Shown in pieces: positions 1 to 62,295 of a stretch of 64,000 nt of DNA. Source of the DNA: Bacteroidales bacterium. GTDB lineage: Bacteria; Bacteroidota; Bacteroidia; Bacteroidales; F082. Below the pieces are notes generated by a model. The model made no database searches. It was not told where the DNA came from and was given only the letters and a program-made list of their open reading frames with translations. The DNA lies in assembly GCA_017539045.1 (NCBI GenBank), contig JAFYHS010000010.1, positions 38,106 to 102,105 of the forward strand, in the 5' to 3' direction. The position numbers and the translations under genes were made by a program. Every line of letters begins with the position of its first letter. Positions within the stretch are counted from its first letter, which is position 1.

Positions 1-660
1 TGGGCCCATGCACTCACGTAGCTTGACCGAGCGGAATTCCATGACATTCTGGAACAGTTGTATCTCCTGCTGCATGTCTTCGTCGGCTTCCTCTTGGTCG
101 GCATATTCCGCAATATAGTCGTTCAAATCGACGGTGCTGAATTTGTATTCCTGGCTGTCGACCTTCATACGTAGCACATAACGGATGACAAACTCCGAGA
201 TGCCAGTATACAACAGCGTCAAGGGATAGAAAAGGCAATAGCAGGCAAAGGTCGGGAAAGCGAAAAACGACAGGATGGCGTTAGGGTTGATGCGGAAAAG
301 CATCTTGGGCAGGAACTCGCCCACCAACAGAACCAATAGGGTTGCTAGGATGGTCTTCACCAACAGCACCATGAAGTCGTTGTCGAATGCAATGTACTGC
401 AGCCAATGGTTGACAGGTGCATCGAGCAGTTGCGACATGCTCATGCCATAGATGATAAGGGCGATGTTGTTGCCCAACAGCAGCGAGGTGATGAAACGCG
501 ACTGGTTCTTGAAAAACAGGCTGATCAGCTTGGCAGAAAACGAATTCTTGGTCAACTCGACCTCCAGCTGCAGGCGGTTGATGCTATTGAAGGCAATCTC
601 AAGACCCGAGCACAGGGCGGAGAAAAACAGGGAAACGGCAACGACAATCCAGCTATTCAT
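1..660 (-). CDS. CNNM (DUF21) domain membrane protein, hemolysin C/CorC-like, 3' end outside window
   Basis: The first 220 residues of a CNNM/DUF21 protein are present; the gene runs off the left edge. The N-terminus carries the family pattern ALCSGLEIAF, followed by SLLLGNNIAL and GEFLPK, with about three hydrophobic helices, then an acidic cytoplasmic stretch (YADQEEADEDM) that normally precedes the CBS pair. Family members are implicated in divalent cation or other ion transport; in Bacteroidota, GldE is a relative, but gldE sits next to gldD and that context is absent. The ATG lies 2 bp after the lptC stop, so it is probably the last visible gene of an operon with the OMP, TPR and lptC genes. 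CBS and CorC-C domains cannot be confirmed because the end is missing. Confidence 0.85.
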   Translation of the reverse strand, partial: MNSWIVVAVSLFFSALCSGLEIAFNSINRLQLEVELTKNSFSAKLISLFFKNQSRFITSLLLGNNIALIIYGMSMSQLLDAPVNHWLQYIAFDNDFMVLLVKTILATLLVLLVGEFLPKMLFRINPNAILSFFAFPTFACYCLFYPLTLLYTGISEFVIRYVLRMKVDSQEYKFSTVDLNDYIAEYADQEEADEDMQQEIQLFQNVMEFRSVKLRECMGP

Positions 661-662
661 GG

Positions 663-1223
663 TCATTCCTCCTCATCAATGTCGAGCAGGGCGCTGCCCG
701 AATACATGGTATATTCCGAGAAATCCTCCCTAGCCACCAAACTGTCGGCCTCGATTTGTTTGTCGGGCGTTACGATTTTCACATGTGACCGTGTGTAGAG
801 CATCTTTAGATTCTGATACCAAAACAGTTTATCGGAATACATGGTCTCGTCGCTGCCAAAGTTCTTCACGATTACATTGCCTTGCGCCTCGATCAGCCCT
901 GTCTTACCATAGCTCTTGCCATAGTCGGCATGCAATTCGGTCTTCTTCTGCTGTTTGTCGTACATATACACGTCGAAGCCCAAAGGAAACTCCATGATTT
1001 CATCTTCCGTCTCCATACGGACCATGCGGGGTGTACGCAGTTCGATGCTGACCATACCCGAGTCGCTACGATAGAAAACCACGCTATCGGCGATGATGCC
1101 TGACAGCGTGTCGTCGGACCCCATGGCTTGCACCAGCGCATCGGGGTTAGAACACGAAAACAACATCACAGCCATGAAGGCTGTGATGTTGAATATGATT
1201 CCTATTTTCAGGATGTTTTTCAA
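663..1223 (-). CDS. lptC: LPS export ABC transporter periplasmic lipoprotein LptC
   Basis: 186 residues. LptC bridges the inner-membrane LptBFG transporter to LptA in the lipopolysaccharide export bridge. The N-terminus is a lipoprotein signal ending in LFSC (Cys24), usual for Bacteroidota LptC. The rest is a beta-jellyroll of OstA/LptC type, with recognisable patterns: ADSVVFYRSDSG, a FPLGFDVYMYD strand, ADYGKSYGKTGLIEAQGNV and YSDKLFWYQNLKMLYT. The start codon is TTG, directly after the TAA of the upstream TPR gene; no ATG fits before the signal peptide. The order OMP-TPR-lptC-CNNM is one I recognise from Bacteroidales genomes. Confidence 0.9.
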   Translation of the reverse strand: MKNILKIGIIFNITAFMAVMLFSCSNPDALVQAMGSDDTLSGIIADSVVFYRSDSGMVSIELRTPRMVRMETEDEIMEFPLGFDVYMYDKQQKKTELHADYGKSYGKTGLIEAQGNVIVKNFGSDETMYSDKLFWYQNLKMLYTRSHVKIVTPDKQIEADSLVAREDFSEYTMYSGSALLDIDEEE

Positions 1224-2675
1224 TTACTTCTTAGCTCTGATGGTCGTCGTTTCGCCGATCCATCCACCCACGTTGAAGGACTGGCCTTCGCTGTAGTCGT
1301 TGAAGAAGATGGTTTCCATCGACGGGAAGGCGGCGGTGTAGGCGCGGATCAGACCATTGGCCTTGTCGGCGCATGCAGGATCGATAGCTTTAGCCTTCAA
1401 GCACTTGTCGACGGCAGCCCAGAACACGGCCTTGCTTTCGATTTCGCCGCTGAACTGCTTGGCACTGCCAGCATACAGCATGGCGATGAGGAGGTAAGGC
1501 TCGCCGTTGGTCGGGTCGACCTGAGCGGCTCTTCTGTAGATGTCACGTGCACGCGACAGGCTGCCCATGTTCTCGTAGCACATACCCAGGTTACGATAGG
1601 CACGATACTTACGGTCGTTGTTGTCGGTCTTGGTGGCCTGCTCAAAGAAGGTGGCGGCATCGCTCCATTTTCTATCCTTGAAGAACTTGACACCCAAGCT
1701 GTAGGAAGCTTCCGGGCTGGGCTCCAGTTCGTTGAGTCTGACAGCAGCGTCCAAGAAGAGCTTCGAATCGGTGCAGTCCTTCTTATCCAAGATGGTGGTG
1801 ATGCGCTTGAGGAGCACCACGTCGTCGGGCGTTTCCTTCATCTTTGCGCTGAACACCTTGATCAGGTCTTCGCACGAGGCATAGGGCTGGAACAGGTTGT
1901 CGAGGTTGCTCTTCACACCCTTGTTGATGTTGATGTTCTTCTCGTTCTTCTCAATCTGCTTGTCGAAGCTAGCCACCGCGTCGGCATCGCCTGCAGCTTC
2001 AGCGTCTTCCTTAGCGGAGACCAGTTCGGCCTCAGTTTCGGCCAGTGCACCGATATTGTTATCGAGCACCTCACTGAGTTCTTGATAGACATTGATGACG
2101 GTCATCTTCTCGGCCTTGTCGTTGTTCACCATGTCGATGGTGGCCTTGAAGTAAGCGTCGATGTAGGCACCCTGCAGCTGCGAGGGATCCATGGCGACAG
2201 CATCTTTCAGGACGTTGTAGGCCTCTTCATAACGGTTCTTATTATAAGTGTAGATGAGAAGACCTTTACGGCCCATGATGTTGGCCACTTGAGAGCCACC
2301 CGTCTTGGGATCAACCGGGAAGTACTTGGCGCGGTTGTCCATCATCATGCAGATGGTGTCGATGTAGGCGTCCTTGTCCTTCGGGTTGGTGCGGATGAAA
2401 TAGTCCATGATCTTTTCACCTCTCGTGTAGATCAACTGGCTTGCGCGGGGGCAGTTGAGAAACACCTCTCTCCAAGCCTTGACCATTTCCATGCTGATGG
2501 ATTCGGGGGCGAACTTGTTCGACTCCCACTGTTTGTAAGCTTCTCCGTAGATGGAGAGGTTGGTCACGCAGGCGACGCTATCGGCGCCATACTTCGACTC
2601 CGATGCCTCTTGGGCGTTTACACTCATTGCCATTCCAATCATGACGGCAATCACCAAAAATCTTTTCGTTTTCAT
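1224..2675 (-). CDS. TPR repeat protein, exported
   Basis: 483 residues with a type I signal peptide (cleavage predicted at VNA|QEA, so Gln at +1). The mature part has helical TPR-like repeats, clearest between residues 320 and 400 (SYSLGVKFFKDRKWSDAATFFEQA, YRNLGMCYENMGSLSRARDIYRRA in successive units), plus a charged coiled coil around 210-245. It is likely a periplasmic scaffold; no enzymatic motif is visible. It lies between an outer membrane protein and lptC, with no gap before lptC, which suggests a shared transcript and a role in outer membrane biogenesis. That role is inferred only from context. Confidence 0.85.
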   Translation of the reverse strand: MKTKRFLVIAVMIGMAMSVNAQEASESKYGADSVACVTNLSIYGEAYKQWESNKFAPESISMEMVKAWREVFLNCPRASQLIYTRGEKIMDYFIRTNPKDKDAYIDTICMMMDNRAKYFPVDPKTGGSQVANIMGRKGLLIYTYNKNRYEEAYNVLKDAVAMDPSQLQGAYIDAYFKATIDMVNNDKAEKMTVINVYQELSEVLDNNIGALAETEAELVSAKEDAEAAGDADAVASFDKQIEKNEKNININKGVKSNLDNLFQPYASCEDLIKVFSAKMKETPDDVVLLKRITTILDKKDCTDSKLFLDAAVRLNELEPSPEASYSLGVKFFKDRKWSDAATFFEQATKTDNNDRKYRAYRNLGMCYENMGSLSRARDIYRRAAQVDPTNGEPYLLIAMLYAGSAKQFSGEIESKAVFWAAVDKCLKAKAIDPACADKANGLIRAYTAAFPSMETIFFNDYSEGQSFNVGGWIGETTTIRAKK

Positions 2676-2750
2676 CTCTTTCTTATTTTAATTGTTTGAC
2701 TTGTTTACGCTATATTCAAATATCGTTCCAAAATGTTTTTCGGCGAAAAA

Positions 2751-4052
2751 TCATTTGTATTTACGCTTCATAAACCAGCGTTCATACACCGAAACGCCTA
2801 CATTTACCTTCAGATAACGTTCCTGTATCAGGCCTGCCTCGCGGGTGCCATACTGCCCGACTTCAAGGGCAAGGTTAACCTTCGAGAGGGTCTTGGGCAG
2901 TGGCAATGACATGCCAGCGGTAAAGCCCACCTTATTAATATGATGTTCGCCACCATCGTTACCGGGGAGGCAAATGAAGCCACGCTCATAGAAGCCGCCA
3001 ATGCGATAGGCAACACGCGAGAAATAGCCCGTCACGGAAGTGTGGCGCGGGATGAATTCGCCACCGGCGCTCACGCTCCAAGCATCCTGAAGCACATCAC
3101 TCGCCCCTTCACGGGCAAACTTCGACCATTGCATCCAGTTGAAGTCGGCGCCAAGGGTCCAGCGGTCGTCCTTTTGAAGGGCGACACCAACGCCAAAGCC
3201 TTGCGGCATGGTGATTTTCGTGCTATTGGTTTGGTTGGAGACCGTATCGATGACGAACTCCACTCCTGTGTCGATGTCTTCCTCGAAAGAACGAACAAAA
3301 AGGGTCTGTTTGCCCTTGAGTCTGACCTTCTGATTATAGGTCAAACCAAGACTCAAGTGCATATCGTTGGCAACATCAAAGTTGCAGAGCGCACCGTAAT
3401 CAAACATGAACGAGCTCACCATCAAGTCGACACTGCGACGGGTACCGATGTAATAAGCCGAGTCGGGGAAATAAAGGGTGGTCTCCGTTTGGGTGTCGCC
3501 AAACACGTAATGCACGTTGGCTCCAACAGCCACGTGTTTCCCGATCTTGAAGGCATTGCCCAAGAAGGCCTGGTTGAGACCGCCCGCACCCTTGAAACGT
3601 GTGGCGATGTTGCCCACTTCAGACACATTTGACTTGACTAGCATGGTATAGCCCGAGGTACTGTAAGGCTGCACACCCAAGGCCATACGCCACCAAGGTG
3701 TCACGCCAAAGGCCATCGACACATAGTCGAAAGAAGCGTTGGCCGACTTCTCGGACAGGTTGGAAGTGCTGAACGTCGAAGACTTGAAATACAAACCGGC
3801 ATCGAAAAGGAAAGCCAGCGAGTCAATCTTCGCATAGGAAGCCGGATTCTCGGCATTGATCATCCCTCCTCCGTATAAGGCATTGGCCGTTCCGCCCATA
3901 CCTTGTAGTCTGGCATTCATCGACTTGTCTCTCACCTGCCCCACTCCAAAAAGTGAATAAGGAGAATCGACATCCGCTTGGGCCATCACATCAATGCTGA
4001 GACCAGCCGCAAGCAGCAACATTATAATGCTTTTCAACAATACATTTCTCAT
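2751..4052 (-). CDS. Outer membrane beta-barrel protein, OmpP1/FadL-like
   Basis: 433 residues from the chosen ATG; an upstream in-frame ATG at 4088 would put a charged extension before the signal peptide (MRNVLLKSIIMLLLAAG) and is less likely. Cleavage is predicted at VMA|QAD. Near the mature N-terminus it has SPYSLFGVGQ and a Gly/Asn-rich segment (QGMGGTANALYGGGMINAENPASYAKID) typical of the Bacteroidota OmpP1/FadL-like family, followed by alternating amphipathic strands and a terminal aromatic strand. FadL relatives move hydrophobic compounds across the outer membrane; the substrate here is unknown. It heads the run towards the TPR gene and lptC. Confidence 0.8.
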   Translation of the reverse strand: MRNVLLKSIIMLLLAAGLSIDVMAQADVDSPYSLFGVGQVRDKSMNARLQGMGGTANALYGGGMINAENPASYAKIDSLAFLFDAGLYFKSSTFSTSNLSEKSANASFDYVSMAFGVTPWWRMALGVQPYSTSGYTMLVKSNVSEVGNIATRFKGAGGLNQAFLGNAFKIGKHVAVGANVHYVFGDTQTETTLYFPDSAYYIGTRRSVDLMVSSFMFDYGALCNFDVANDMHLSLGLTYNQKVRLKGKQTLFVRSFEEDIDTGVEFVIDTVSNQTNSTKITMPQGFGVGVALQKDDRWTLGADFNWMQWSKFAREGASDVLQDAWSVSAGGEFIPRHTSVTGYFSRVAYRIGGFYERGFICLPGNDGGEHHINKVGFTAGMSLPLPKTLSKVNLALEVGQYGTREAGLIQERYLKVNVGVSVYERWFMKRKYK

Positions 4053-4217
4053 AAGTAAAATCTTACGCGCGCTCTTTTGAGCGTGCAAATATCCGATTTT
4101 TTAACTCTTTGAGCAAGTTTTTATTGCCTATTTTATAACCCTAGTTTTGCATCTCATTGAATTTCAATAAGAAAGAATTTGAAAAGCAAAAAAAATGTTG
4201 ATTTTGAAGATTTTTCC

Positions 4218-4247
4218 TTGACGCAAAAGAAAAAAGTCGTACTTTTG
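4218..4247 (+). promoter_or_regulatory. Bacteroidota-type promoter for tRNA-Phe
   Basis: TTG at 4218-4220, a 19-nt spacer and TACTTTTG at 4240-4247, matching the TTG / TAnnTTTG pattern of Bacteroidota promoters. The tRNA begins 16 nt further on. Confidence 0.7.
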
Positions 4248-4262
4248 CAGCGCAAAAACGGA

Positions 4263-4335
<73 letters not shown>

Positions 4336-4346
4336 CGTAAAACAGA

Positions 4347-4371
4347 AGCCAGACGATGTCTGGCTTTTTTT
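4347..4371 (+). terminator. Rho-independent terminator after tRNA-Phe
   Basis: Perfect 8-bp stem AGCCAGAC/GTCTGGCT with a 3-nt loop, followed by a T run. Confidence 0.85.
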
Positions 4372-4375
4372 GTTG

Positions 4376-4407
4376 TTGCTGTGAGATACCATTTTTTCGT
4401 ACTTTTG
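4376..4407 (+). promoter_or_regulatory. Promoter for lnt-dus
   Basis: TACTTTTG at 4400-4407 with a TTG at 4376-4378 (21-nt spacer), 20 nt before the lnt ATG. Confidence 0.6.
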
Positions 4408-16963: not shown

Positions 16964-19507
16964 ATGAAAAAAAGCTCTTTACTCTCTTTGTTCCTTATCC
17001 TGGCCACACTAGGCATGGCGCAGGTGGAATACGTTTACGATTTCAACAGCCTCACCGAAGGCTCACAAAACCTCAACGGCCAAGATGGCTGGGTGACGCA
17101 TTACCAGACCGCCGCCTCGTCGCAAGACTTCGATGTCAGCTACGTCTGCGGCTCTGACATGGCTCCTGACGAAAGTCTCGCCATTTGGTATCCCTACGGC
17201 GGCTCAGGTGTAGGCCGCACGGCTACTCGTAAGGCCTCATCGAATTTCAACTTCAGCTTCCAGAGCGGGGGCATCATGGATCTCGAGATTGACATGAACC
17301 GCACCTGGTGGGGCAGTTTCTTCGGCGTGGGCTTTGATAGCGACGGCGACGGCCATATCCTGCCCGGCATGACTGATCCCGACGGTGGCGTCTACCTCTT
17401 CATCAAGAGCCAAGGCGATAGTGGCCATGCCAAGGTATGCTTGCCCGACGGCAGCAACATCCCCTTCGATTACGAGGAAGGCGGCTGGACCCGCTACAAG
17501 ATGTCGTTCGACTTCACGGCTTACGACGGCGCAGGTGCCGTCACGGTGTTCGTGAAGCCCGGCTGCGAGGGTGAATGGATACAGATGGCGGGCTGCACCA
17601 ACGTCTGCATGAACCTCACCCCGGGTAGTGGCGACAAAAACGACTACCAAGTTTGGGACGGCATCTTCTTCCACTCACAAGGTGGCACGGGCGGCTTTGA
17701 CAACCTCCTCGTGCGCCAGCAACCCGACGGCAACGCCCAACTCATCGAGATGGCTGACATTCCCAACCAACTGATATTCAACGCCCCTATTACCTTGGAA
17801 GCCACCGCTTCATCTGGACTGCCCGTCTCCTTCGAGATGATGGAAGGCCCTGCCACCATCAATGGCAATGTGCTCACCTTGACGGGTGAGACAGGTGTCG
17901 TCAAGTTCAAAGCCACGCAGGCTGGCGATGCCAACTGGCTACCTGCCCCTGATGTGGTGAAGTCTTTTGAGGTGGTAGATCCATATGCTTATGAACCTGA
18001 AGTGAAAATCCGTCGACCTTATGAAGGCACCAAGGTCTATTTGGATGACATTCACCCTGTTATGATCGTCGTTTCAGCCTATATCGAACATCCTGAGGTA
18101 ATCAAGTTCACTGATGTTACGGCGAGCATTGATGGACAAGAGATTGCCCTCCAGACCGACCATCCTGAGGACCCTGAAAACGGCTATTATTATGGTTTTT
18201 GGACGCCTTCTGGCTTCGGCGCCTATAATATGACCGTCAGTGTGACGCAGAGCGGCGACAAGACTACCACCTTCAGCAACAGTTTCGAGGTGACGGACGA
18301 CATCGATAGCCATTTGGATGTGGTGACCATGCACGGCGACCTCGTCTGCGACCCGACGCATCATAGTGCCAAGGGCAACTATGCCATACCCACACATGTG
18401 GGCGCCTTTAATGAGATTATGGCGCACTACGACCACACCTGTGTGAATGGCAACTGCGACAGCTACGACCGCGTAGGCGGCGTGAAGGTGCGCAACTACC
18501 GTGGCGAGTGGGTCGAGCTGTTCCGCTATATCACTCCTTTCGGTGTGCAGTGCGACGACGACGTCGATGTAAGCGACTATACCTCGTTACTACAGGGCTT
18601 GGTTGAACTTGAGTTCTACATGGAGAGCTGGGGCGGTAGCGGATACGACCCCACCCTGATCTTCAGTTTTACTAAGGGCACGCCCGACTACCTCTATGCT
18701 GACATCGATGAGATCTGGTTTGGTACTTACGCCTTCGGCGACTACGCCAACCAGCAGCCCGTACCCGTTGTGGATTATTCTTTCAGCGACCAAGCGCAGT
18801 CCGCTAAACTGAAAATCACGACGACTGGACACAACTGGAGCAGTGGCACCAACAACAGCTACAACACGGGCAACGCCGCCGAGTTCTATGAGGCCACGCA
18901 TCATGTTTTGGTGAACGGACAAAATAAATACGACCAGCATCTGTGGCGCAGCTGCTCACCCAATCCGGCGGGCTGCCAACCGCAAAATGGCACCTGGACC
19001 TACCCACGCAGTGGATGGTGTCCGGGCAGCATCGGCATGGTATGGGACTTCGACCTGACAGAGTACCTCGCCGCCGGACAAGCCGAGCTGTTCTACCAGT
19101 TCGACCCGACCTATCTCGACTACTGCCACCCCAACCACCCCGACTGCGTCGACGGCGTCACCTGCACCGAATGTGCCGCACCCGACAACCCAGTGCTGCG
19201 TGTGGCGGGCAAAGTCGTCTCTTTCAGCAACGACGAAGACCTGCTGGTGAGCGTACATGAGTCCCATGCAACACCCGCTTTCACAGCTGAGGTTTACCCC
19301 AACCCCGCCAGGGGACAATTCACCATCAGCACCGACTACGGCAAGGGCGCAGTCAGCGTGATGATGCTCAACATGTACGGTCAAATGGTGATGTTCTTCA
19401 CCGTGGAAGGCCAACGCACCATCGACGTAAGCCGTCTGCCTGCCGGCATCTATACCCTGCAGATGCTGGGCGGTAGCGTGGTGACCCAAAAAGTCGTTGT
19501 GGAATGA
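16964..19507 (+). CDS. PNGase F-like amidase with T9SS type A sorting domain
   Basis: 847 residues. A signal peptide (GMA|QVE) is followed by a lectin-like beta-sandwich (about 22-252), an Ig-like/MBG-type segment (about 262-337) and a second beta domain (about 345-445). Residues about 450-750 match the two-domain fold of PNGase F, the enzyme that cleaves N-glycans from asparagine: CDSYDRVGG, YRGEWVELFRYITPF, LEFYMESW, KGTPDYLYADI and SGWCPG all align. The three PNGase F acids (D60, E118, E206) correspond to D502, E554 and E640. Residues about 772-847 form a T9SS C-terminal sorting domain (VYPNPARGQF, LPAGIYTLQM, VVTQKVVVE). It should be secreted to the cell surface or medium by the T9SS encoded at 47.7-53.8 kb. 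Activity is predicted, not shown. Confidence 0.88.
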   Translation: MKKSSLLSLFLILATLGMAQVEYVYDFNSLTEGSQNLNGQDGWVTHYQTAASSQDFDVSYVCGSDMAPDESLAIWYPYGGSGVGRTATRKASSNFNFSFQSGGIMDLEIDMNRTWWGSFFGVGFDSDGDGHILPGMTDPDGGVYLFIKSQGDSGHAKVCLPDGSNIPFDYEEGGWTRYKMSFDFTAYDGAGAVTVFVKPGCEGEWIQMAGCTNVCMNLTPGSGDKNDYQVWDGIFFHSQGGTGGFDNLLVRQQPDGNAQLIEMADIPNQLIFNAPITLEATASSGLPVSFEMMEGPATINGNVLTLTGETGVVKFKATQAGDANWLPAPDVVKSFEVVDPYAYEPEVKIRRPYEGTKVYLDDIHPVMIVVSAYIEHPEVIKFTDVTASIDGQEIALQTDHPEDPENGYYYGFWTPSGFGAYNMTVSVTQSGDKTTTFSNSFEVTDDIDSHLDVVTMHGDLVCDPTHHSAKGNYAIPTHVGAFNEIMAHYDHTCVNGNCDSYDRVGGVKVRNYRGEWVELFRYITPFGVQCDDDVDVSDYTSLLQGLVELEFYMESWGGSGYDPTLIFSFTKGTPDYLYADIDEIWFGTYAFGDYANQQPVPVVDYSFSDQAQSAKLKITTTGHNWSSGTNNSYNTGNAAEFYEATHHVLVNGQNKYDQHLWRSCSPNPAGCQPQNGTWTYPRSGWCPGSIGMVWDFDLTEYLAAGQAELFYQFDPTYLDYCHPNHPDCVDGVTCTECAAPDNPVLRVAGKVVSFSNDEDLLVSVHESHATPAFTAEVYPNPARGQFTISTDYGKGAVSVMMLNMYGQMVMFFTVEGQRTIDVSRLPAGIYTLQMLGGSVVTQKVVVE

Positions 19508-47691: not shown

Positions 47692-48534
47692 TCAATATTC
47701 CCAAAGGCTCTGTTCGAAGTCGAACATTTCGTTCTTGATACGCTCTGATTCGTAGAGGGCATCGATGTTAAAAGCATAGGAGTTGATGTAACGGTCGTAC
47801 ACGTTTTCTTCCTTGATGATGTAGCTGTCGAAGATACGCTTCTGGAGCACTTCATCATAGGTGCGGCGCTGGGCCGAGTTGTTGCGGTTGAAGGCAAAGG
47901 CTCTAGCCAGCACGTCGCGTGACTCTTCGTAAGGAACCCAGCACACCTGCGACAGGCCACCGTCATCGTCGACAACGATGGGACCCAGGGCGATGATGCG
48001 GACGAGGAACTGCGACAATTTCTTGTCGAAGTACCAGTCTTCCTTGATACGCAGACGGGTCACGTTGAGCATACGATCCTTGAAGGCGATCTCATTCGGC
48101 ACTTCCTCGCCATCTTTCCAGATGACCGGCGGGTCGCCAATCTTCGTGTTTTCTTTTTCAAAATCATCGCGAGTCAAAGGAGTGACCATGTCATCGATAT
48201 TGTTCTCAACGCGATAAGGGGTAATCTCACCGCTATTGATGCCGTCGTAGATGACCGTGATAAGGTTTCTCCAATCCTCGGTCGGATTAATCGGATAGTA
48301 GAACACTTGATTGATCTTCTGACGGAAGTCGATTTCCCTAATCACCGTCTTCTTCCACATGACGCTCGATTCGTCGATAATCGGAAGCGGCGAAGGTCTC
48401 TTTTCGTTCATGATTTGTTGCTGACCTGAGAGGATGCTGTTCTTCGGGCCTTTGACATCGGTGGTCTGGGCTTTGAGGCTCAGGCTGCCGAGAAGCACCA
48501 CGAGGGTCAACAAGGAAACAAGTGTCTTTTTCAT
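47692..48534 (-). CDS. gldN: T9SS component GldN/PorN
   Basis: 280 residues from the ATG at 48534, where a clean signal peptide begins (MKKTLVSLLTLVVLLG, cleavage LKA|QTT); an ATG 24 nt earlier overlaps the gldM stop. GldN/PorN is the periplasmic ring partner of GldK. Family sequence: WKKTVIREIDFRQKINQVFYYP, LITVIYDGINSGEITPY, VTRLRIKEDWYFDKK (each in part), and the LSQVCWVPYEESRDVLA end region. Last gene of the core operon, with a terminator behind it. Confidence 0.93.
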   Translation of the reverse strand: MKKTLVSLLTLVVLLGSLSLKAQTTDVKGPKNSILSGQQQIMNEKRPSPLPIIDESSVMWKKTVIREIDFRQKINQVFYYPINPTEDWRNLITVIYDGINSGEITPYRVENNIDDMVTPLTRDDFEKENTKIGDPPVIWKDGEEVPNEIAFKDRMLNVTRLRIKEDWYFDKKLSQFLVRIIALGPIVVDDDGGLSQVCWVPYEESRDVLARAFAFNRNNSAQRRTYDEVLQKRIFDSYIIKEENVYDRYINSYAFNIDALYESERIKNEMFDFEQSLWEY

Positions 48535-48557
48535 TTTATTGAAATTTTGATTGTTCA

Positions 48558-50300
48558 TTACTTGATTTCAACACCGATAGGCGTTTCGATGGTCTTAGTC
48601 TTACCGTCGTTACCTCTCACCTGGATGGCGGTGAACACGAACATGTCGCCGACATTGGCCTGGCTGATGGCATTTCTGATCTCGTCGGTAAAGCCACCGC
48701 TGTTAGCCTTGGCTTCCTTGGTGGTACCGCTCTTGGTCTTATAACGGAAGGTGTAACCAACCACGTCATAGTGGACACCGTCGAAGTCGAAGTCCTTCAT
48801 CTCAGCTTCCACACGACCGGCGGCTTGCAGAGCGCTCTTCGACACCTGGCCGTTGACCACGTTACGGATGAGAGCCGTGGGCTTGGGCAGGTCTTTCACG
48901 CGGAACTTCATGCTACCAAGGCTGGAACCACCCGAAGTCACGCTGATGGTCACTTCGTCGGCAGCACCCGGGAGCAGGTTATAGGTACCGTTGCCCGTTC
49001 TGGTCAACGAACCGCTGCTAGCAGAGGCGTTGATTTCGCCACCGACACCACCGCCGACGGCAATCGGGTTGTTAATACCACGATACACCACGTTCATCTT
49101 GGTGGCCGACACACTCACCGCGGGGGGAGCGACGACGAAGGAGTTCTCGAAGGTGTAGTCCTTCAACTCGCCCGTCTTGGGATCCAACATCTGGATGACA
49201 CCGTTATATCTGTGGCTACCAACACCGCAGTTGAATTCGAGGTTGATCAAACCTTGACCATCGCTGGTGTATTCCTTCATCGGGCCGCCATCAAGGCTAA
49301 CCGTAGCGGTCGTCTTGGCATTCTGCCAAGCGGTCACCATGGCTTGTGCCTTATAGGTCTGACCAGAGAGGAGGTATCCGCTCTCAGCAAACACCTTGGC
49401 ACCGATCTCATCGAAGGTAAAGTCGGAAGCGTGGATGTTCGTCATCAGTTGGGTGACGGCATTCAGCTCGGCTGTCTGGGCCTCAGAGATGATCTTGTTC
49501 AGCAGGGTGACGTCAGCCACAAGGACGGTGTGGTGGAAGTTGTTGTACTCCCAGCTGTTCTGCACGGGATCGGCAGAATTCTCATCGTAATTGTACTTGG
49601 CACCATAGTATTCGCCTTCCAAGGGGAGTCTCTTCAGCTTGTCTTCCGACACTTTGGCTTGCTCCATGACATATTCCTTAGTACCATAGATACTATCGGT
49701 AATCAATCCGATTTCATGGATATGAGAAGGACCGACGGCTTTGACGACCTCGCCACGGAAGCGGCGAATCCTTTCGGACAGATCGTAGGCTTTGCCACCG
49801 TTGCCCGGACCTTCGGGGTTACCCATCATATAGGCCGTGGGTTGGTTGTAGTTGTCTCTCGATTTCACCTTGGAGGTGTTGATGTCATACATCTTACGAC
49901 CGTTTCTCAAGGTGTCGGCATTCCTCAGAAGACCGTTATCAAGAGCCATCTGTGCAGCTTCGACAGGGGTTTCAGCCTTGCTGCATTCGACTTTCTTCAC
50001 GAGGTCCCATTTCAGGGCTTCCACGTAGTCAATCAGTGAATTGGCTTCCTCGCGCAAAGCTTGAGCCTGTTCCCAGAACGGGCCGGCTTTCTCGGGCTCC
50101 TTTGAGTACTGCTCCTCAAAAGCGGTGTACTTCTGGTCGATCTGTTGCGCTAGGGTAATATTCGTAGTTTGAACACCGTTGTTGACGGTGTCGAAGGCAT
50201 CCAAGATGTCCTTCGAAACGTTCATGGCTAACAAGGCAGTGTAGACCAGGTACATCATACCGATCATCTTCTGTCTTGGGGTTTCTTTTGCGCCTGACAT
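48558..50300 (-). CDS. gldM: T9SS motor component GldM/PorM
   Basis: 580 residues. GldM spans the periplasm from an inner-membrane helix and, with GldL, forms the proton-driven motor of the T9SS. N-terminal KMIGMMYLVYTALLAMNVSKDIL is the conserved TM with its glutamine/asparagine-rich follow-on; four periplasmic domains follow (helical D1, then beta domains), the last with VVGYTFRYKTKSG and AISQANVGDMFVFTAIQVRG (in parts). Length somewhat above the commonly seen 510-520 residues, mainly in the D1/D2 region. Confidence 0.94.
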   Translation of the reverse strand: MSGAKETPRQKMIGMMYLVYTALLAMNVSKDILDAFDTVNNGVQTTNITLAQQIDQKYTAFEEQYSKEPEKAGPFWEQAQALREEANSLIDYVEALKWDLVKKVECSKAETPVEAAQMALDNGLLRNADTLRNGRKMYDINTSKVKSRDNYNQPTAYMMGNPEGPGNGGKAYDLSERIRRFRGEVVKAVGPSHIHEIGLITDSIYGTKEYVMEQAKVSEDKLKRLPLEGEYYGAKYNYDENSADPVQNSWEYNNFHHTVLVADVTLLNKIISEAQTAELNAVTQLMTNIHASDFTFDEIGAKVFAESGYLLSGQTYKAQAMVTAWQNAKTTATVSLDGGPMKEYTSDGQGLINLEFNCGVGSHRYNGVIQMLDPKTGELKDYTFENSFVVAPPAVSVSATKMNVVYRGINNPIAVGGGVGGEINASASSGSLTRTGNGTYNLLPGAADEVTISVTSGGSSLGSMKFRVKDLPKPTALIRNVVNGQVSKSALQAAGRVEAEMKDFDFDGVHYDVVGYTFRYKTKSGTTKEAKANSGGFTDEIRNAISQANVGDMFVFTAIQVRGNDGKTKTIETPIGVEIK

Positions 50301-50344
50301 AATCTTACTCCTTTTTTATGTTAAACAATCAGGTTTGAGTAGAA

Positions 50345-51205
50345 TTATGCCTTGATGTTCATTGCTGACAACATTCCACCGTAGACATTGTTGAGGGCGG
50401 TCAAGCGGGCTGACAGTTGCGTCAGTTGGTCGTTGAGGACGCCGGCGTTCTTCGATGAAGCGTTGAGGTTATCCATATACTTGTTCATTGTCTCAGTCAA
50501 GGCCTTGCTGGCAGCCGAAGTCTGTTCGGCACCCTGCAGTTGAAGCTCATAGATGGAGTTGAGCGACTGCATGCTGCTGGCCACCTTCTTGATGGTGTTG
50601 GCATCGAGAGCGCTGAAGTCGAGCTTGCCCAAGGAGTCAGAAAGCTTCTGGTTGGTTTGGACATAGGCGTTCGAGAAGTCGGAGATAGACTTCGTGGCGC
50701 GGTCCATAGCATTGGCATAATTGGTAGTGGCAGCCATGGCGTTCGAGATGTCGGCCATCTGACCAGCGTTTTGGGCCAACTTGTCGAGACCCTTACCAAT
50801 CTTATTGAAAGTTTCCTCACTGACATTCATCTTTTCGAACATCTTGCTGAGCATAGCCTCTTCCATATCGGTGGCAGCAGCGGGGCGACCAGCACCTGAA
50901 GTGGCAAACTGGGTCTTCTGCACACCGTCCCAGTCCTCATCCAATTCAACAAAGACATTGTCCCAAGCATAGTCAAGATGTTGGGGCTCAAAAGCGGACA
51001 AGAAGAAAATCAAAGCTTCGACACCCAGACCGAGAGCCAGCATCAAGTCAGCACCTTGGATGTGGGTCAACTTAAAGTAAGCACCAACCATAACGATAGC
51101 GGCACCAATGCCATAAACGGCACCCATGAATGATTTATACTTCTTCGATTGAGTGAAGGCTTGGAATTTTTTGAATCCTGTGAGGTTTTCTTGTTTTTTT
51201 GCCAT
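50345..51205 (-). CDS. gldL: T9SS motor component GldL/PorL
   Basis: 286 residues: two TM helices (about 26-43 and 53-69; VYGIGAAIVMVGAYFKLTHIQGADLML spans the turn) and a long cytoplasmic coiled coil. The conserved acidic and GADLMLALGLGVEALIFFLSAFEP segment (in parts) is the proton-path region shared with GldM. Located between gldK and gldM. Confidence 0.94.
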   Translation of the reverse strand: MAKKQENLTGFKKFQAFTQSKKYKSFMGAVYGIGAAIVMVGAYFKLTHIQGADLMLALGLGVEALIFFLSAFEPQHLDYAWDNVFVELDEDWDGVQKTQFATSGAGRPAAATDMEEAMLSKMFEKMNVSEETFNKIGKGLDKLAQNAGQMADISNAMAATTNYANAMDRATKSISDFSNAYVQTNQKLSDSLGKLDFSALDANTIKKVASSMQSLNSIYELQLQGAEQTSAASKALTETMNKYMDNLNASSKNAGVLNDQLTQLSARLTALNNVYGGMLSAMNIKA

Positions 51206-51249
51206 AGTTTTAATTGCAATTAAATGTTATACTTATGTTTATTTTATTC

Positions 51250-52659
51250 TTATCTGTAAACTCTCGACATTCTCGGGTTGTCGCCCTTGTTACGACCCAG
51301 GTAAGGCTGGATGCAGCGGAAACCGGTGAAGCAGTTGGCTGAATCCTGGTATTGGTAGTCGCGGGTGGTGACTTGCAGATAGTAAGCCACGTCCTTCCAT
51401 GAACCGCCACGGATGACCTTACGCTTCATGACAGCCGGATCGTCGGCCTTGGCGTTGTAGGTGTAGTTGGGGTTCATGTCCCAAGTGAAGTTGTACGAAT
51501 TGGGGTCATAGGCGCTGTTGGTCCATTCCGACACATTGCCAGCCATATCGTAGAGGCCCCAGCCATTGGGAGGATAGCAGCCCACCACGAGGGTACGCAG
51601 ACCGCCGTCGGCGAGGTAGTTACCTCTTCTGGGCTTGAAGTTAGCCATGAAGCAACCCTTGGCATTGCTGGCGTTAGGACCGCCCCACGGATAGGGGTTC
51701 AACATCTTGCCACCACGGGCAGCCCATTCCCATTCAGCCTCGGTAGGCAGACGGAACTCCGACATGTCAACATCCTTCTTGGTACGAAGGTAAGCGTTGA
51801 GCAGCTCGGTGCGCCACACGCAGAAAGCACGGGCTTGTTGCCATGTGACACCCACCACCGGGTAGTTGTCGTAAGCCGGATGCCAGAAATACTTCTCGGT
51901 CATCGGGTCGTTGAATGAATAGGCATAGTCGTGAATCCAGCAAAGCGTATCGGGATAGACATTGATGACCTCGGCACGGGCATAGACCGAACGGTCGCTA
52001 TAGCCCTGTCTACGGTTCGACCAGGCGCCCTTGCGGTCGACGTTGATACCAGCATCGGCTTCACCCAGCGAATAGTCATTCTCGACGAGCTTGTCGTCAG
52101 CAAAGTCCTTTCTGGCGGCAGCTACCATATCGAACCAATAGTAGGAATAATACAACTTTCTGGTATCGATTTCCTTTCTGCGGAAATATCTCTCATGCTC
52201 AGGAAGATACATAGGCTCAAGCGCCTCGCGGACATCTTGTTCCTTGCTGTTCCAATCGATCTTTTCCTTCCAATTCAGCCTCGGCGGGTCATACACCTCA
52301 CCAGTCTTGCTCTCGGTGATGGCGTATCTGTCAGGGAAGTTATCAGCAAGTATTCTTCTTGCGATGGAGTCTCTGACCCAATAAACAAATTGGCGATACT
52401 CGTTGTTGGTGATTTCGGTCTCATCCATGAAAAAAGCGGAGACTGACACCGTCTTCGGCTCATTGAGGTAGGATGCGGTAATGTCTTCACCACCAACGCC
52501 CATGGTATAATTACCTTGCGGGACAAACACCATCCCGTAGGGGTCAGGCTGATTGAAAGTCTTGTTGGACTTTCGCACGCCAACCAATTCGCCTTGATTT
52601 GAATTGCCGCAGGCTGCAAGCAGCAGCGTCACGGAAAACACGAACAATAGTTTTTTCAT
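51250..52659 (-). CDS. gldK: T9SS lipoprotein GldK/PorK
   Basis: 469 residues: lipobox LLAAC, then an FGE/SUMF1-like fold (MVFVPQGNYTMG, FFMDETEITNNEYRQFVYW, FRLPTEAEWEWAARGG, YDMAGNVSEWTNSAYD, VIRGGSWKDVAYYLQ). GldK/PorK forms a large periplasmic ring with GldN under the outer membrane. The catalytic Cys pair of true formylglycine enzymes is not evident, as expected for this structural homologue. Confidence 0.94.
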   Translation of the reverse strand: MKKLLFVFSVTLLLAACGNSNQGELVGVRKSNKTFNQPDPYGMVFVPQGNYTMGVGGEDITASYLNEPKTVSVSAFFMDETEITNNEYRQFVYWVRDSIARRILADNFPDRYAITESKTGEVYDPPRLNWKEKIDWNSKEQDVREALEPMYLPEHERYFRRKEIDTRKLYYSYYWFDMVAAARKDFADDKLVENDYSLGEADAGINVDRKGAWSNRRQGYSDRSVYARAEVINVYPDTLCWIHDYAYSFNDPMTEKYFWHPAYDNYPVVGVTWQQARAFCVWRTELLNAYLRTKKDVDMSEFRLPTEAEWEWAARGGKMLNPYPWGGPNASNAKGCFMANFKPRRGNYLADGGLRTLVVGCYPPNGWGLYDMAGNVSEWTNSAYDPNSYNFTWDMNPNYTYNAKADDPAVMKRKVIRGGSWKDVAYYLQVTTRDYQYQDSANCFTGFRCIQPYLGRNKGDNPRMSRVYR

Positions 52660-58664: not shown

Positions 58665-60056
58665 ATGTCCAACATCAACGACGAGCGGAAGATCAACGAG
58701 CGGTATAAGATGATGACGGAGCAGCCCGTTAGGCGGCTGATCCTCAAGATGGCCGTGCCGACCATCATCAGCATGCTCGTGACCACCATTTATAATATGG
58801 TGGACTCGTTCTATGTAGGACATTTGAGCACCGAAGCTGTGGCAGGCGTGGGGGTCTCCTTTGCCTATATGGCCTTCATCAACGCTTGTGGCTTCTTCTT
58901 CGGGCATGGCTCGGGCAACTACATCTCGCGGGCCTTGGGGGCCAAGCAGGGTCAGAACGCAGGGCGCATGGCTGCCACGGGCTTCTTCACGCCATTGATT
59001 GTAGGTGCCCTTGTGGGCTGGAGTTGTCTGCTGTTCATCTCGCCCTTGTCGCGAGCCATGGGCGCCACCGACAGCATCCTCCCCTACGCCAACAACTACT
59101 TGCGTTTCATCCTGATTGCCACACCTTTCATGATGTCGTCGCTGACACTCAACAACCAGTTGCGACTGCAAGGCAACGCCCGTTTCGGCATGATCGGCAT
59201 TGCCTCGGGCGCCATCCTCAATATCATCCTCGACCCAATCTTTATCTTTGTGCTTGACTTGGGTGTCAGTGGCGCCTCATTGGCCACGGCGGTGAGCCAA
59301 TGTTTCGGCTGGTGCATCTTACTTTGGGGCACTTCGCGACCTGGCAATGTGCACATCAAGCTGAAGAATTTCACTCCTACCCTATACTATTACAAGGAAA
59401 TCACGCGGGGCGGCTTGCCTTCGTTGGCACGGCAGGCCTTGTCGGTGGTGGCCACCATCAGCCTCAACCGTATGGCGGTGCATTATGCCTTGCCTAGCAA
59501 CGAAGCCTCCACGGTGGCAGCTTTCACCATTGTTTCGCGCATCACTATGTTCTGCTTTGCCGTTGTCATCGGGTTTGGACAAGGCTTTCAGCCCGTGTGC
59601 GGCTATAACTACGGTGCCAAGCTTTACGCCCGTGTCAAGGAAAGCTATATGTTTTGTATCACCCTGTCCACGGCTTTTTTGATTGTCTTAGCCACCGTAG
59701 TCTATATCTTTGCGCCCGACATTATCTCTTGGTTCCGTGGCGAAGACCCCGAGCTCATCCGCGTGGGCAGTCAAGCTTTGCGTTGGCAGTGCATCGCTTT
59801 CCCGCTGATGGGCATGTGCACTGCGACCAACATGCTGTTCCAAAACATCGGCTACACCTGGCAGGCCACGCTGCTCTCGATGTGCCGACAAGGCTTGTAT
59901 TTCCTGCCTGCGGTCTTCATCATGTCGTGGCTTTGGGGAATCACAGGCATCGAAGCCGCACAAGCCGTCGCCGATGTTTGCACCTTCTTGACTTCGTTGC
60001 CGTTTGCCATCTGGATCTACAGAGTACTCACCGCGAAGTCACAGCATAATGCGTGA
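58665..60056 (+). CDS. MATE family efflux transporter
   Basis: 463 residues from the ATG at 58665, twelve TM helices in two homologous halves. MATE features: [55 protein letters not shown] (in parts), [25 protein letters not shown], and in the second half [17 protein letters not shown]. These export drugs or metabolites with Na+ or H+. The 3' end overlaps the GH95 gene by 29 bp, tail to tail. Confidence 0.92.
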
Positions 60057-62295
60057 CTTTCCCATCCTTCCAAGTGCATTCCACCACCTTATTGCCTCGG
60101 GCGCAAAGCCCTTTGAAATGGCCGTCCTTCCATACCGATGGCAGTGCGGGCAGCAACTCGATTTCCCCGTCATGGCTTTGCAGCAGCATCTCGGCGATGC
60201 CAGCCGTGCCGCCGAAGTTGCCGTCGATTTGGAAAGGAGGATGGGCGCAGAAAAGGTTAGGATAGGTGCCTGCTGAATGGCTTCCGTCAAGATGAACTGC
60301 TGGTTCGAGCAGGTTCCTCAAAAGATGATAGGCATGATCGCCATCATGAAGCCGTGCCCAGAAGCAGATCTTCCATGCTCTTGACCAGCCTGTGCCTTCG
60401 TCGCCACGACGACATAAGGTCTCACGGCAGGCATCCATCAGTTCGGGTGTCTTGGATCGGGTCAACATCGTGCCAGGATAAAGGCCGAAGAGATGCGACA
60501 CATGGCGGTGTTGTGGCTCCACTTCCTTGTAGTCTTTCAGCCATTCCTGCAGATAACCCTGCTCGCTAACCTGCATAGGCGGAAAATGGGATTTGGCATC
60601 GCGAAGGCTGTCGGAAAAAGCCTCATCGACACCCAAAATGTCTGCCGACTGACACACCGCATCGTACAGCTCGCTGACAATCTGAACATCCATTGTGCTG
60701 CCCATGCACACGCTGACGGCGGTGCTGTCGTTGAGCCAGAAGGCGTTTTCAGGCGAGGTCGTCGGGGCGGTGACGAGCCAGCCATGTCCGGGTTCCTCTA
60801 TCATCGCATCGAGGAAGAACTGCGCTGCCTCTTTCATTAATGGATAAGCCTCACGCAGGAAATTTGTGTCGTGCGTAAACTCATAATGCTGCCATGCGTG
60901 CAGGGCCAGCCAAGCCCCGCCCGTATTGGTGGCACCCCACGAAGGATGCTCGCCAGGGGCCGTGAAGCCCCATGGGTTGCAGACCACATGGGCGGTCCAA
61001 CCTCGGGCGCCGTAGAACGATTGTGCTGTCTTTCGTCCTGAAGGCATCAACCCTTCGGCAAAATGAATCAATGGCGGGTGCAACTCCGAGAGGTTGCACA
61101 CCTCGCAAGGCCAGTGGTTCATCTCCACGTTGATGTTCAGGTGGTAGTCGCCGTTCCAAGGGGTCTGGATGGTGTTGGCCCACAAACCTTGCAGGTTGGG
61201 CGGCAGCAGGTCCTCGCGCGTGGAGCTGATAAGCAGGTAACGCCCGTAATGGAAGTAACAGGTCGGTAGCCAAGGGTCGTCGTTGACGAGGAAATCTTTC
61301 CAATGGTCTTCCAATGTGAGGTTTTGTTTCTCTTTGGGATCGCCAACCACCAACTCCACACGGTCAAACAGCTCGTGATGGGCTTTCAGATGGTCGATTT
61401 TTACCGCCTCAAAGCCTTTTTCGATGGCCTTTTGCAGATGTTCCTTGACATACGCCTCGGGGTCGTCGCACATGAAATCGGTGGCAGCACAGAAGTAGAC
61501 GATTGTTTCGTTGTTGGATGCAACCATCTGTGCCTTAGCATAATATTGCATTCCTTCCACGCCTTCTACGTTGCTGTCTAACTGGCCGAACATCACTACG
61601 CCGTCAGCATCATTGATGACTTCGGCTTTTTCGGGACGGGAGAGGTTGATGGTGAGGGGAAGGCAGGTCGTTGAGCCTGTCGAAACGCCGTCATAAATTA
61701 CGGTCGGCCCTTCGACGGGCTCAGGGACCTTAACTTCTATCACCGCGACATCATCAACGCGAGAGATAAAGCTTTCGCGCTCGTAATGTTGTCCGCCTTT
61801 CTCGAAGGAAACCTTGTGTGTGGCGTCGTTGAGGCACAGTGTCCGCTGATAGTTCGTCACGGAATCGTAATTGGGATAATGATAGGTAATCGTCATGTTG
61901 CCCAAGGTCTGGTAGCAGCCAAAAGGCACCTTGGCGCCTTGGCCATGGCCCGAGCCTTCGCCACCGCAGACAAAGGTCTCGTACATCAGGTTTTGTGCTT
62001 CGTCGTTCCTACCTTCTTTCAAAAGTTGTTGGATTTTGGGCAGGGATTCCAACGCCAAGGGGTTGCTGTCGTCGCTCGGTGCGCCTGACCACAAAGTAAT
62101 ATCGTTCAACACAATGGTCTCCTCGTCCACCCCACCGTCGGGCGTCATGCCGAGATGGCCGTTGCCCAAAGGGAAACATTCCTCCCAGAGTTGAGCCGGA
62201 GAAGTTACAATGAGATTCCATGATTGGGATTGCTCTTTCGTCTGACAACCCAACAATCCAGCCAAGAGTAATATGCCAAAAAAACGCAGTTTCAT
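60028..62295 (-). CDS. GH95 family alpha-L-fucosidase-like lipoprotein
   Basis: 755 residues: lipobox LLGC (Cys17), then the GH95 opening [19 protein letters not shown] and [15 protein letters not shown]. Catalytic-region motifs are intact: [19 protein letters not shown] (two key Asn), TTSPENAFW (Glu) and [17 protein letters not shown] (Asp). GH95 enzymes remove alpha-1,2-fucose (some act on galactose). Residues about 189-210 ([10 protein letters not shown] then DGVSTGSTT) are extra and coded by two copies of a palindromic repeat, in the N-terminal beta-sandwich, away from the active site. Probably surface- or periplasm-anchored. Confidence 0.9.
61666..61689. repeat. Palindromic repeat, copy 2 (in GH95 coding region)
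   Basis: 24-bp unit containing TTGAGCCTGTCGAA, identical to the copy at 63748. Read on the coding (minus) strand it specifies GVSTGSTT. Confidence 0.85.
61706..61729. repeat. Palindromic repeat, copy 3 (in GH95 coding region)
   Basis: 24-bp unit with core TTCGACGGGCTCAG, inverted relative to copy 2 and 16 bp away from it. On the coding strand it specifies VPEPVEGP. Confidence 0.85.

What the first reader, a model, noticed from the sequence alone, without database searches (positions are those of the whole stretch)
16964..19507. PNGase F-like deglycosylase as a type IX secretion cargo, with all three catalytic acids conserved
The region 450-750 of this 847-residue protein aligns by eye with PNGase F over both jelly-roll halves, and the acids D60, E118 and E206 correspond to D502, E554 and E640. 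Unlike the short Elizabethkingia enzyme, it carries a lectin-like domain and two beta domains in front and a T9SS sorting domain behind. A secreted N-glycan amidase with its own binding modules would let the cell strip host or plant glycoproteins. The GH95 fucosidase elsewhere in the window fits the same lifestyle.
Basis: partly seen in the sequence, partly recalled or inferred. Interest (0 to 1): 0.72.

Follow-up and report, generated by a model that had tools for sequence, protein, structure and literature searches.

The report
Secreted N-glycan-cutting enzyme with sugar importer
The gene encodes a secreted enzyme of the PNGase F kind that should cut sugar chains off glycoproteins, and its relatives often sit beside an outer-membrane importer, so the pair looks like a small glycoprotein-foraging system of gut bacteria.

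Summary
ORF 16964..19507 (+, 847 aa) has a PNGase F catalytic region (best PDB match PNGase F, E 3.5e-29; Pfam N-glycanase_C above cut-off) and a type IX secretion (T9SS) tail; D60/E118/E206 align with D502/E554/E640. The T9SS core operon lies in the same window. The fold could not be predicted (tool off); the 'lectin-like' front module is not supported by sequence. Such enzymes are in print (PNGaseDo, PNGaseL), so the protein is a new member of a known kind. The context seems new. In 17 of 20 loci sampled from 14 other families, and in 51 of 63 same-genus SusC loci (7 of the other 12 cut by contig ends), the PNGase lies beside a SusC-SusD importer. The window copy stands apart, but its genome has a second copy directly behind SusC-SusD, the only full SusC found there. 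In 90 genus genomes SusC occurs in 63 of 68 with this PNGase type and 0 of 22 without. Copies often form tandem arrays. D60 and E206 do not vary in 136 copies; the E118 position (core-fucose gate) does. Proposed: surface release of N-glycans, then SusCD import.

The parts
16964..19507 (+). T9SS-exported PNGase F-type amidase gene, 847 aa
16964..17020 (+). N-terminal signal peptide by eye (residues 1-19)
   Evidence: sequence; inference, no predictor run
17021..17728 (+).
17729..18310 (+). Residues 256-449, perhaps Ig-like linker modules (Big_1 matched somewhere in 6 of 47 family members scanned, not in this one)
   Evidence: inference
18311..19243 (+). Catalytic region, residues 450-760 (query used for relatives); PNGase F alignment covers 463-690
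18467..18469 (+). D502, counterpart of D60
18623..18625 (+). E554, counterpart of E118 (core-fucose gate)
18881..18883 (+). E640, counterpart of E206
19292..19501 (+). T9SS C-terminal sorting domain, residues 777-846
17701..19100 (+). Segment that is 60-93% identical per 100 bases to two sibling genomes while the flanks are mostly 90-99%: probably a recombined allele
47692..52659 (-). gldKLMN core operon of T9SS (GldN 47692-48558, GldM 48558-50300, GldL 50345-51205, GldK 51250-52659)

Best explanation
[quoted passage not shown] At or beyond the cell surface it hydrolyses the GlcNAc-Asn bond of glycoproteins or glycopeptides, with D502 as the main catalytic acid, E640 assisting and E554 shaping the pocket near C3 of the first GlcNAc. 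Released N-glycans are then taken through the outer membrane by the SusC-SusD importer encoded beside the sister copy elsewhere in the genome, and trimmed by GH92, GH20 and related enzymes. Shown here: family, conserved residues, T9SS tail, T9SS machinery, and linkage and co-occurrence with SusCD. Inferred: catalysis, surface location, what SusCD carries, and core-fucose preference (predicted: glycans without core alpha1,3-fucose for this copy). The roles given to the single acids are recalled from work on PNGase F.
For: PNGase F homology E 3.5e-29, family profile 6.1e-43. D60 and E206 counterparts are identical in 136 of 136 readable copies (4 of 140 not fully readable; rows include near-copies and repeat reads); R248 and W251 counterparts are identical in 137 of 137 rows, window included. 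T9SS tail above cut-off and matched in 47 of 47 family members scanned, window included; gldKLMN in the window and two PorU-type sortases over the cut-off. Own genome: a second copy 46 bp behind SusD, behind SusC; this SusC is the only one of 23 matches over the cut-off, and this SusD is the only SusD-like_2 ORF. SusC or SusD within 500 bp on the same strand in 17 of 20 loci from 14 other families and in 24 of 77 loci; SusC-SusD-PNGase in 48 of 60 further genus loci. SusC and the long PNGase type co-occur in the genus 63/5/0/22. LacI-type regulators directly upstream of SusC in 3 loci, among 10 hand-picked flanking genes scanned singly. GH92 x3 and GH20 present; no GH18 or GH85 found.
Against: The window copy itself is not beside SusCD. 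No structure or assay. N-glycanase_N is below its cut-off. The SusCD loci hold few glycosidases: of 39 neighbours scanned as a batch, GH2 models match 2, and alpha-L-fucosidase, MGH1-like glycosidase and NAGPA 1 each (which shows 25 of 65 families), so the cargo could be peptides. 5 genus SusC loci with enough sequence have no PNGase beside them, and 2 of the 20 other-family loci, with sequence on both sides, have no SusCD. The genome is 81% complete, so absences are weak.
Confidence: 0.72

Rival explanations
1. The enzyme is a PNGase but serves protein rather than sugar nutrition: it strips glycans so that proteases can reach the protein, and the linked SusCD imports peptides as RagAB-like pairs do (RagAB recalled).
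For: Few glycosidases near the SusCD-PNGase loci (partial list); an M28 peptidase follows the PNGase in the window and is found in 31 of 77 loci, 6 of them with SusCD; the SusD is of the SusD-like_2 kind.
Against: LacI-type sugar regulators directly upstream of SusC in three loci; solved relatives of the SusD include glucan and chitin binders among many unnamed ones; M28 is on the opposite strand in the window.
Confidence: 0.25
2. The window copy acts on another substrate, or is a carbohydrate-binding relic, after paralogue divergence.
For: Many paralogues; C204, C208 and W86 of PNGase F are not kept.
Against: D502, R503, W556, W625, E640, R682 and W685 are all kept in this copy, and the D60, E206, R248 and W251 counterparts do not vary in the family (that these line the pocket is recalled).
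Confidence: 0.08
3. The SusCD association is only inherited synteny without shared function.
For: In the genus, shared ancestry inflates the co-occurrence; the window copy lives apart from SusCD.
Against: Adjacency recurs in 13 of the 14 families sampled, with several gene orders (PNGase before or behind SusC) and copy numbers, and no SusC at E <= 1e-80 is found in the 22 genus genomes without the long PNGase type.
Confidence: 0.12

Closest known systems
PNGaseDo (Draconibacterium orientale) and PNGaseL (Flavobacterium akiainvivens), PMC12381499 (outline, section 2.1, Results parts 1-2 of 3 and passages seen)
   Different: That paper calls most of its PNGase genes orphans and describes only the Runella zeae operon; SusC has 0 hits in its main text. 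Whether PNGaseDo has SusCD beside it could not be checked here.
PNGase F, Elizabethkingia (1PGS/1PNF)
   Same: Catalytic region, three acids, the C51/C56 and C231/C252 positions
   Different: No long front modules; 32% identity over aligned columns; C204 and C208 not kept here
Bacteroides group 1 and group 2 PNGases, PMC9522356 (section 5 and passages seen)
   Same: Same enzyme class in Bacteroidales; the residue at E118 (Asp, Gly) goes with core-fucose acceptance
   Different: Group 2 mostly has an NBL front domain; T9SS has 0 hits in the paper's main text
Capnocytophaga canimorsus Gpd complex, PMC3128124 (abstract start in a search listing only)
   Same: Surface glycoprotein deglycosylation complex; its Sus-like parts are recalled
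   Different: Recalled: the enzyme there is a GH18-type endoglycosidase lipoprotein, not a T9SS PNGase

Membership tests
PNGase F family (N-glycanase) | N-glycanase_C domain above Pfam cut-off | tested here: met
   50.2 bits against 25; matched at E <= 0.01 in 47 of 47 family members scanned, window included
PNGase F family (N-glycanase) | N-glycanase_N domain above Pfam cut-off | tested here: not met
   14.4 bits against 22.4; matched at E <= 0.01 in only 3 of 47 members. Yet the N half aligns with PNGase F from its residue 21 on by phmmer, E 3.5e-29 for the whole match, so the model is taken as too narrow rather than the domain as absent
PNGase F family (N-glycanase) | Asp60 and Glu206 counterparts | tested here: met
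   D502, E640; identical in 136 of 136 readable copies
PNGase F family (N-glycanase) | Glu118 counterpart (type I) | tested here: met
   E554 here; variable in the family, Glu in 83 of 136
PNGase F family (N-glycanase) | Double jelly-roll fold with acids in the cleft | not testable with these tools
   Structure prediction switched off
PNGase F family (N-glycanase) | Amidase activity on N-glycoproteins | not testable with these tools
   Needs an assay
T9SS type A cargo | C-terminal sorting domain | tested here: met
T9SS type A cargo | Secretion machinery in the same genome | tested here: met
   gldKLMN, PorU-type sortases
T9SS type A cargo | N-terminal signal peptide | not tested
   Seen by eye only
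SusCD-linked uptake locus | SusC-SusD pair beside the gene | tested here: not met
   Not at the window locus; met for the sister copy in the same genome and for the window-type copy in L054, L059, L065 and others

The most novel reading that the evidence does not exclude
A lineage of rumen and gut Bacteroidales has reduced its SusC-SusD transporters to a single pair devoted to N-glycoproteins, and equips it with arrays of one to four T9SS-delivered PNGases. Across the family the residue at the E118 gate (Glu, Gln, Asp, Gly, Ala, Ser, Val, Ile, Pro, Thr, Tyr) is varied to cover different core-fucose types, and recombination exchanges the catalytic module between genomes.
Probability: 0.35. Interest if true: 0.75.

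Novelty: new variant of a known kind. Interest (0 to 1): 0.6.

Why it matters
PNGases are not glycoside hydrolases, so loci made only of SusC, SusD and a PNGase may escape surveys that look for carbohydrate-active enzymes beside SusCD (inference). A recurring SusC-SusD-PNGase unit would give a testable route for how gut Bacteroidales feed on plant, salivary, fungal or protozoal glycoproteins. It would also give a natural series of enzymes with changed fucose gates, useful for glycan analysis.

Tried and rejected
Structure prediction was tried once and is switched off; fold search therefore had no model and was not used. The lectin reading of the front module was tested by Pfam, PDB profile and hhalign. 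The fronts of distant relatives do match chains such as an arabinanase, pappalysin and sialidases, and 4 of 47 members match Laminin_G_3, but the window's own front does not align with them. GH18 and GH85 as other glycan-release routes in the genome: none found in an 81% complete assembly. A second gene family with strong PF09113 scores and mostly 560-650 aa open frames exists in many genomes of the genus; it is not this protein (22-29% identity in local alignments). Literature: seven searches listed no paper whose title or abstract start describes a SusC-SusD-PNGase locus. Only (3 of 3; 15 of 15) showed every hit; the others showed 20 or 25 of 32 to 4,394. Seen beyond listings: PMC12381499 (outline, section 2.1, Results parts 1-2 of 3, passages), PMC9522356 (section 5, passages) and PMC10154615 (passages). 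Subscription papers are mostly not held, so absence in print is not proven.

Full report
What is there. The ORF at 16964..19507 (+) encodes 847 residues. Pfam gives N-glycanase_C at 598-707 (E 3.1e-13, above cut-off) and the T9SS sorting domain at 777-846 (E 3.3e-12); N-glycanase_N is below its cut-off (E 0.031). Compared with all PDB sequences, the best matches are the PNGase F entries, E 3.5e-29; a profile of 47 family members gives 6.1e-43, and also weak matches to the Bacteroides-type PNGases 7zgn (6.1e-4) and 3ks7 (0.014).

Which residues matter. Of 140 copies gathered from loci L033-L110 and L153-L172, 136 are readable at all three positions. D60 and E206 are identical in 136 of 136; the E118 position is Glu in 83, Gln 13, Gly 11, Ala 8, Asp 7, Pro 4, Val 3, Ser 3, Ile 2, Thr 1, Tyr 1 (one more copy has a gap there, three are cut). 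Some rows are near-copies or the same contig read twice, so these are not independent events. A quick tree needs 23 changes of this residue, fewer than the 51.7 of shuffled labels, so the label is clustered but has changed repeatedly. PMC9522356 (section 5 read) states that Glu118 of PNGase F blocks a core alpha1,3-fucose, that the type II enzyme has Gly there, and that Bacteroides group 1 enzymes have Asp. By that rule this copy is predicted to be closed to core alpha1,3-fucose. PMC12381499 (Results parts 1-2 of 3 read) describes enzymes with an open space there, so the rule is only a guide.

Secretion. The T9SS ring and motor genes gldKLMN lie in the same window (47692-52659), and two PorU-type sortases over the cut-off are in the genome. 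The signal peptide is by eye only.

Neighbourhood of the window copy. Upstream on the other strand is a protein with a DUF4249 match (E 1.5e-5, below its cut-off); downstream are a DUF4476 protein, a 152-aa protein without a Pfam match and an M28 peptidase. None of these is a glycosidase by Pfam. The GH95 protein at 60028-62295 is real (E 2.3e-171) but 40 kb away. The genome (2.36 Mb in 43 contigs, 81% complete) has three GH92, four GH20 matches, two of them weak, no GH18 and no GH85 match.

The sister copy and SusCD. The genome's second copy (883 aa, 57% identical in the catalytic region, Asp/Glu/Glu at the three positions) starts 46 bp behind a SusD-like gene that follows a SusC gene. That SusC is the only one of 23 matches over the family cut-off in the assembly, and that SusD is the only SusD-like_2 ORF.

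Is the linkage general? I fetched 20 regions from other families of the order: 20 of the 35 genomes outside the genus that have a match at E <= 1e-65, chosen by hand before their neighbours were seen, 14 families. 17 have SusC or SusD within 500 bp on the same strand; of the three without, L155 ends at a contig edge, while L154 and L157 are true negatives for the stretch seen. Of the 77 loci, 24 have it; 30 of 77, among them the window's nearest kin, have a DUF4249 gene instead, and no locus shows both. In L054, L059 and L065 the window-type copy itself stands behind SusD, so the window lineage probably moved or split the operon (inference). In the genus, 60 SusC loci were fetched: 48 read SusC-SusD-PNGase and 12 show no PNGase. 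In 7 of the 12 a contig end lies too near for a whole PNGase gene beyond SusD (L189, L193, L194, L200, L219, L234, L240; in L200 SusD itself lies about 5 kb from SusC); 5 are true exceptions (L198, L202, L205, L206, L211). With G000, G033 and G086, where the PNGase lies on the same contig and strand about 3 kb beyond SusC, this makes 51 of 63.

Co-occurrence. In 90 genomes of the genus, SusC at E <= 1e-80 occurs exactly once in 63 and not at all in 27 (at most 8 first-look candidates per genome were scored there, all 25 in the own genome). Long-type copies were counted as PF09113 matches minus strong ones; the match list was cut, so not every weak match was seen to be of the long T9SS type. 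SusC is present in 63 of 68 genomes with such a copy and in 0 of 22 without; the five exceptions are G014, G059, G067, G072 and G075. The Fisher value of 1.5e-16 ignores shared ancestry and must not be read as a probability.

Arrays. 29 loci show two or three neighbouring copies (gaps under 1,500 bases), and overlapping loci of one contig together show four (L067 with L092, L069 with L086); 16 of the 29 mix different residues at the E118 gate. The 29 are not independent.

Distribution. The catalytic region is matched in 102 of 393 genomes of the order at E <= 0.001 (which includes more distant PNGases) and, at E <= 1e-40, in 2 of 296 genomes drawn from the phylum, one of them the own genome.

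Interpretation. The simplest reading is a surface system: T9SS places PNGases at or beyond the outer membrane, N-glycans are released, SusCD imports them, and GH92, GH20 and other enzymes finish the job. LacI-type regulators directly upstream of SusC in three loci (10 hand-picked flanking genes scanned singly) fit a sugar signal. The rival that SusCD carries peptides stays open because glycosidases are few in these loci: of 91 neighbours listed, 10 were scanned and 39, where glycosidase-type models match few members and only 25 of 65 families are shown.

Known or new. T9SS-tailed, multi-module PNGases are in print (PNGaseDo, PNGaseL; PMC12381499). That paper calls most of its PNGase genes orphans. 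I found no description of a SusC-SusD-PNGase unit in seven searches of the held library (listings, most of them capped). Hence: a known enzyme kind in what seems an undescribed, recurring genetic setting.

Noticed in passing
window 17701-19100, against L033 and L061; L034: Two sibling genomes (L033, and L061 = bacterium F082) are mostly 90-99% identical to the window in the flanks and in the two ends of this gene, but 60-93% per 100 bases in the middle (mean 86.8% and 78.4% over 17750-19200). L034 shows the reverse: 86-91% in six of seven 300-base bins from 17100 to 19199 (77% in one) against 60-88% outside. This points to exchange of the catalytic segment by recombination; no donor was found.
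   Followed up: partly
L110:4653-9740 and the 90 genus genomes: The genus shows at most one full-length SusC per genome, unusually few for Bacteroidales (the usual dozens are recalled; at most 8 candidates per genome were scored).
   Followed up: partly
genus genomes, for example L004-L032: A second PNGase-like family, mostly 560-650 aa open frames, scoring about 1e-46 to 1e-53 on PF09113, is common in the genus; this assembly shows none.
   Followed up: no
L172:5809-8013: Protein with an L-type lectin domain, PKD repeats and a CHU_C T9SS signal directly upstream of a PNGase-PNGase-SusC-SusD locus.
   Followed up: no
G000:C8:32817-39589: Two PorU-type T9SS sortase genes over the cut-off in tandem.
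   Followed up: no
L034, L035, L043, L051 and others, upstream of the PNGase: DUF4249 genes stand in tandem, up to four copies (L051), beside the PNGase.
   Followed up: no
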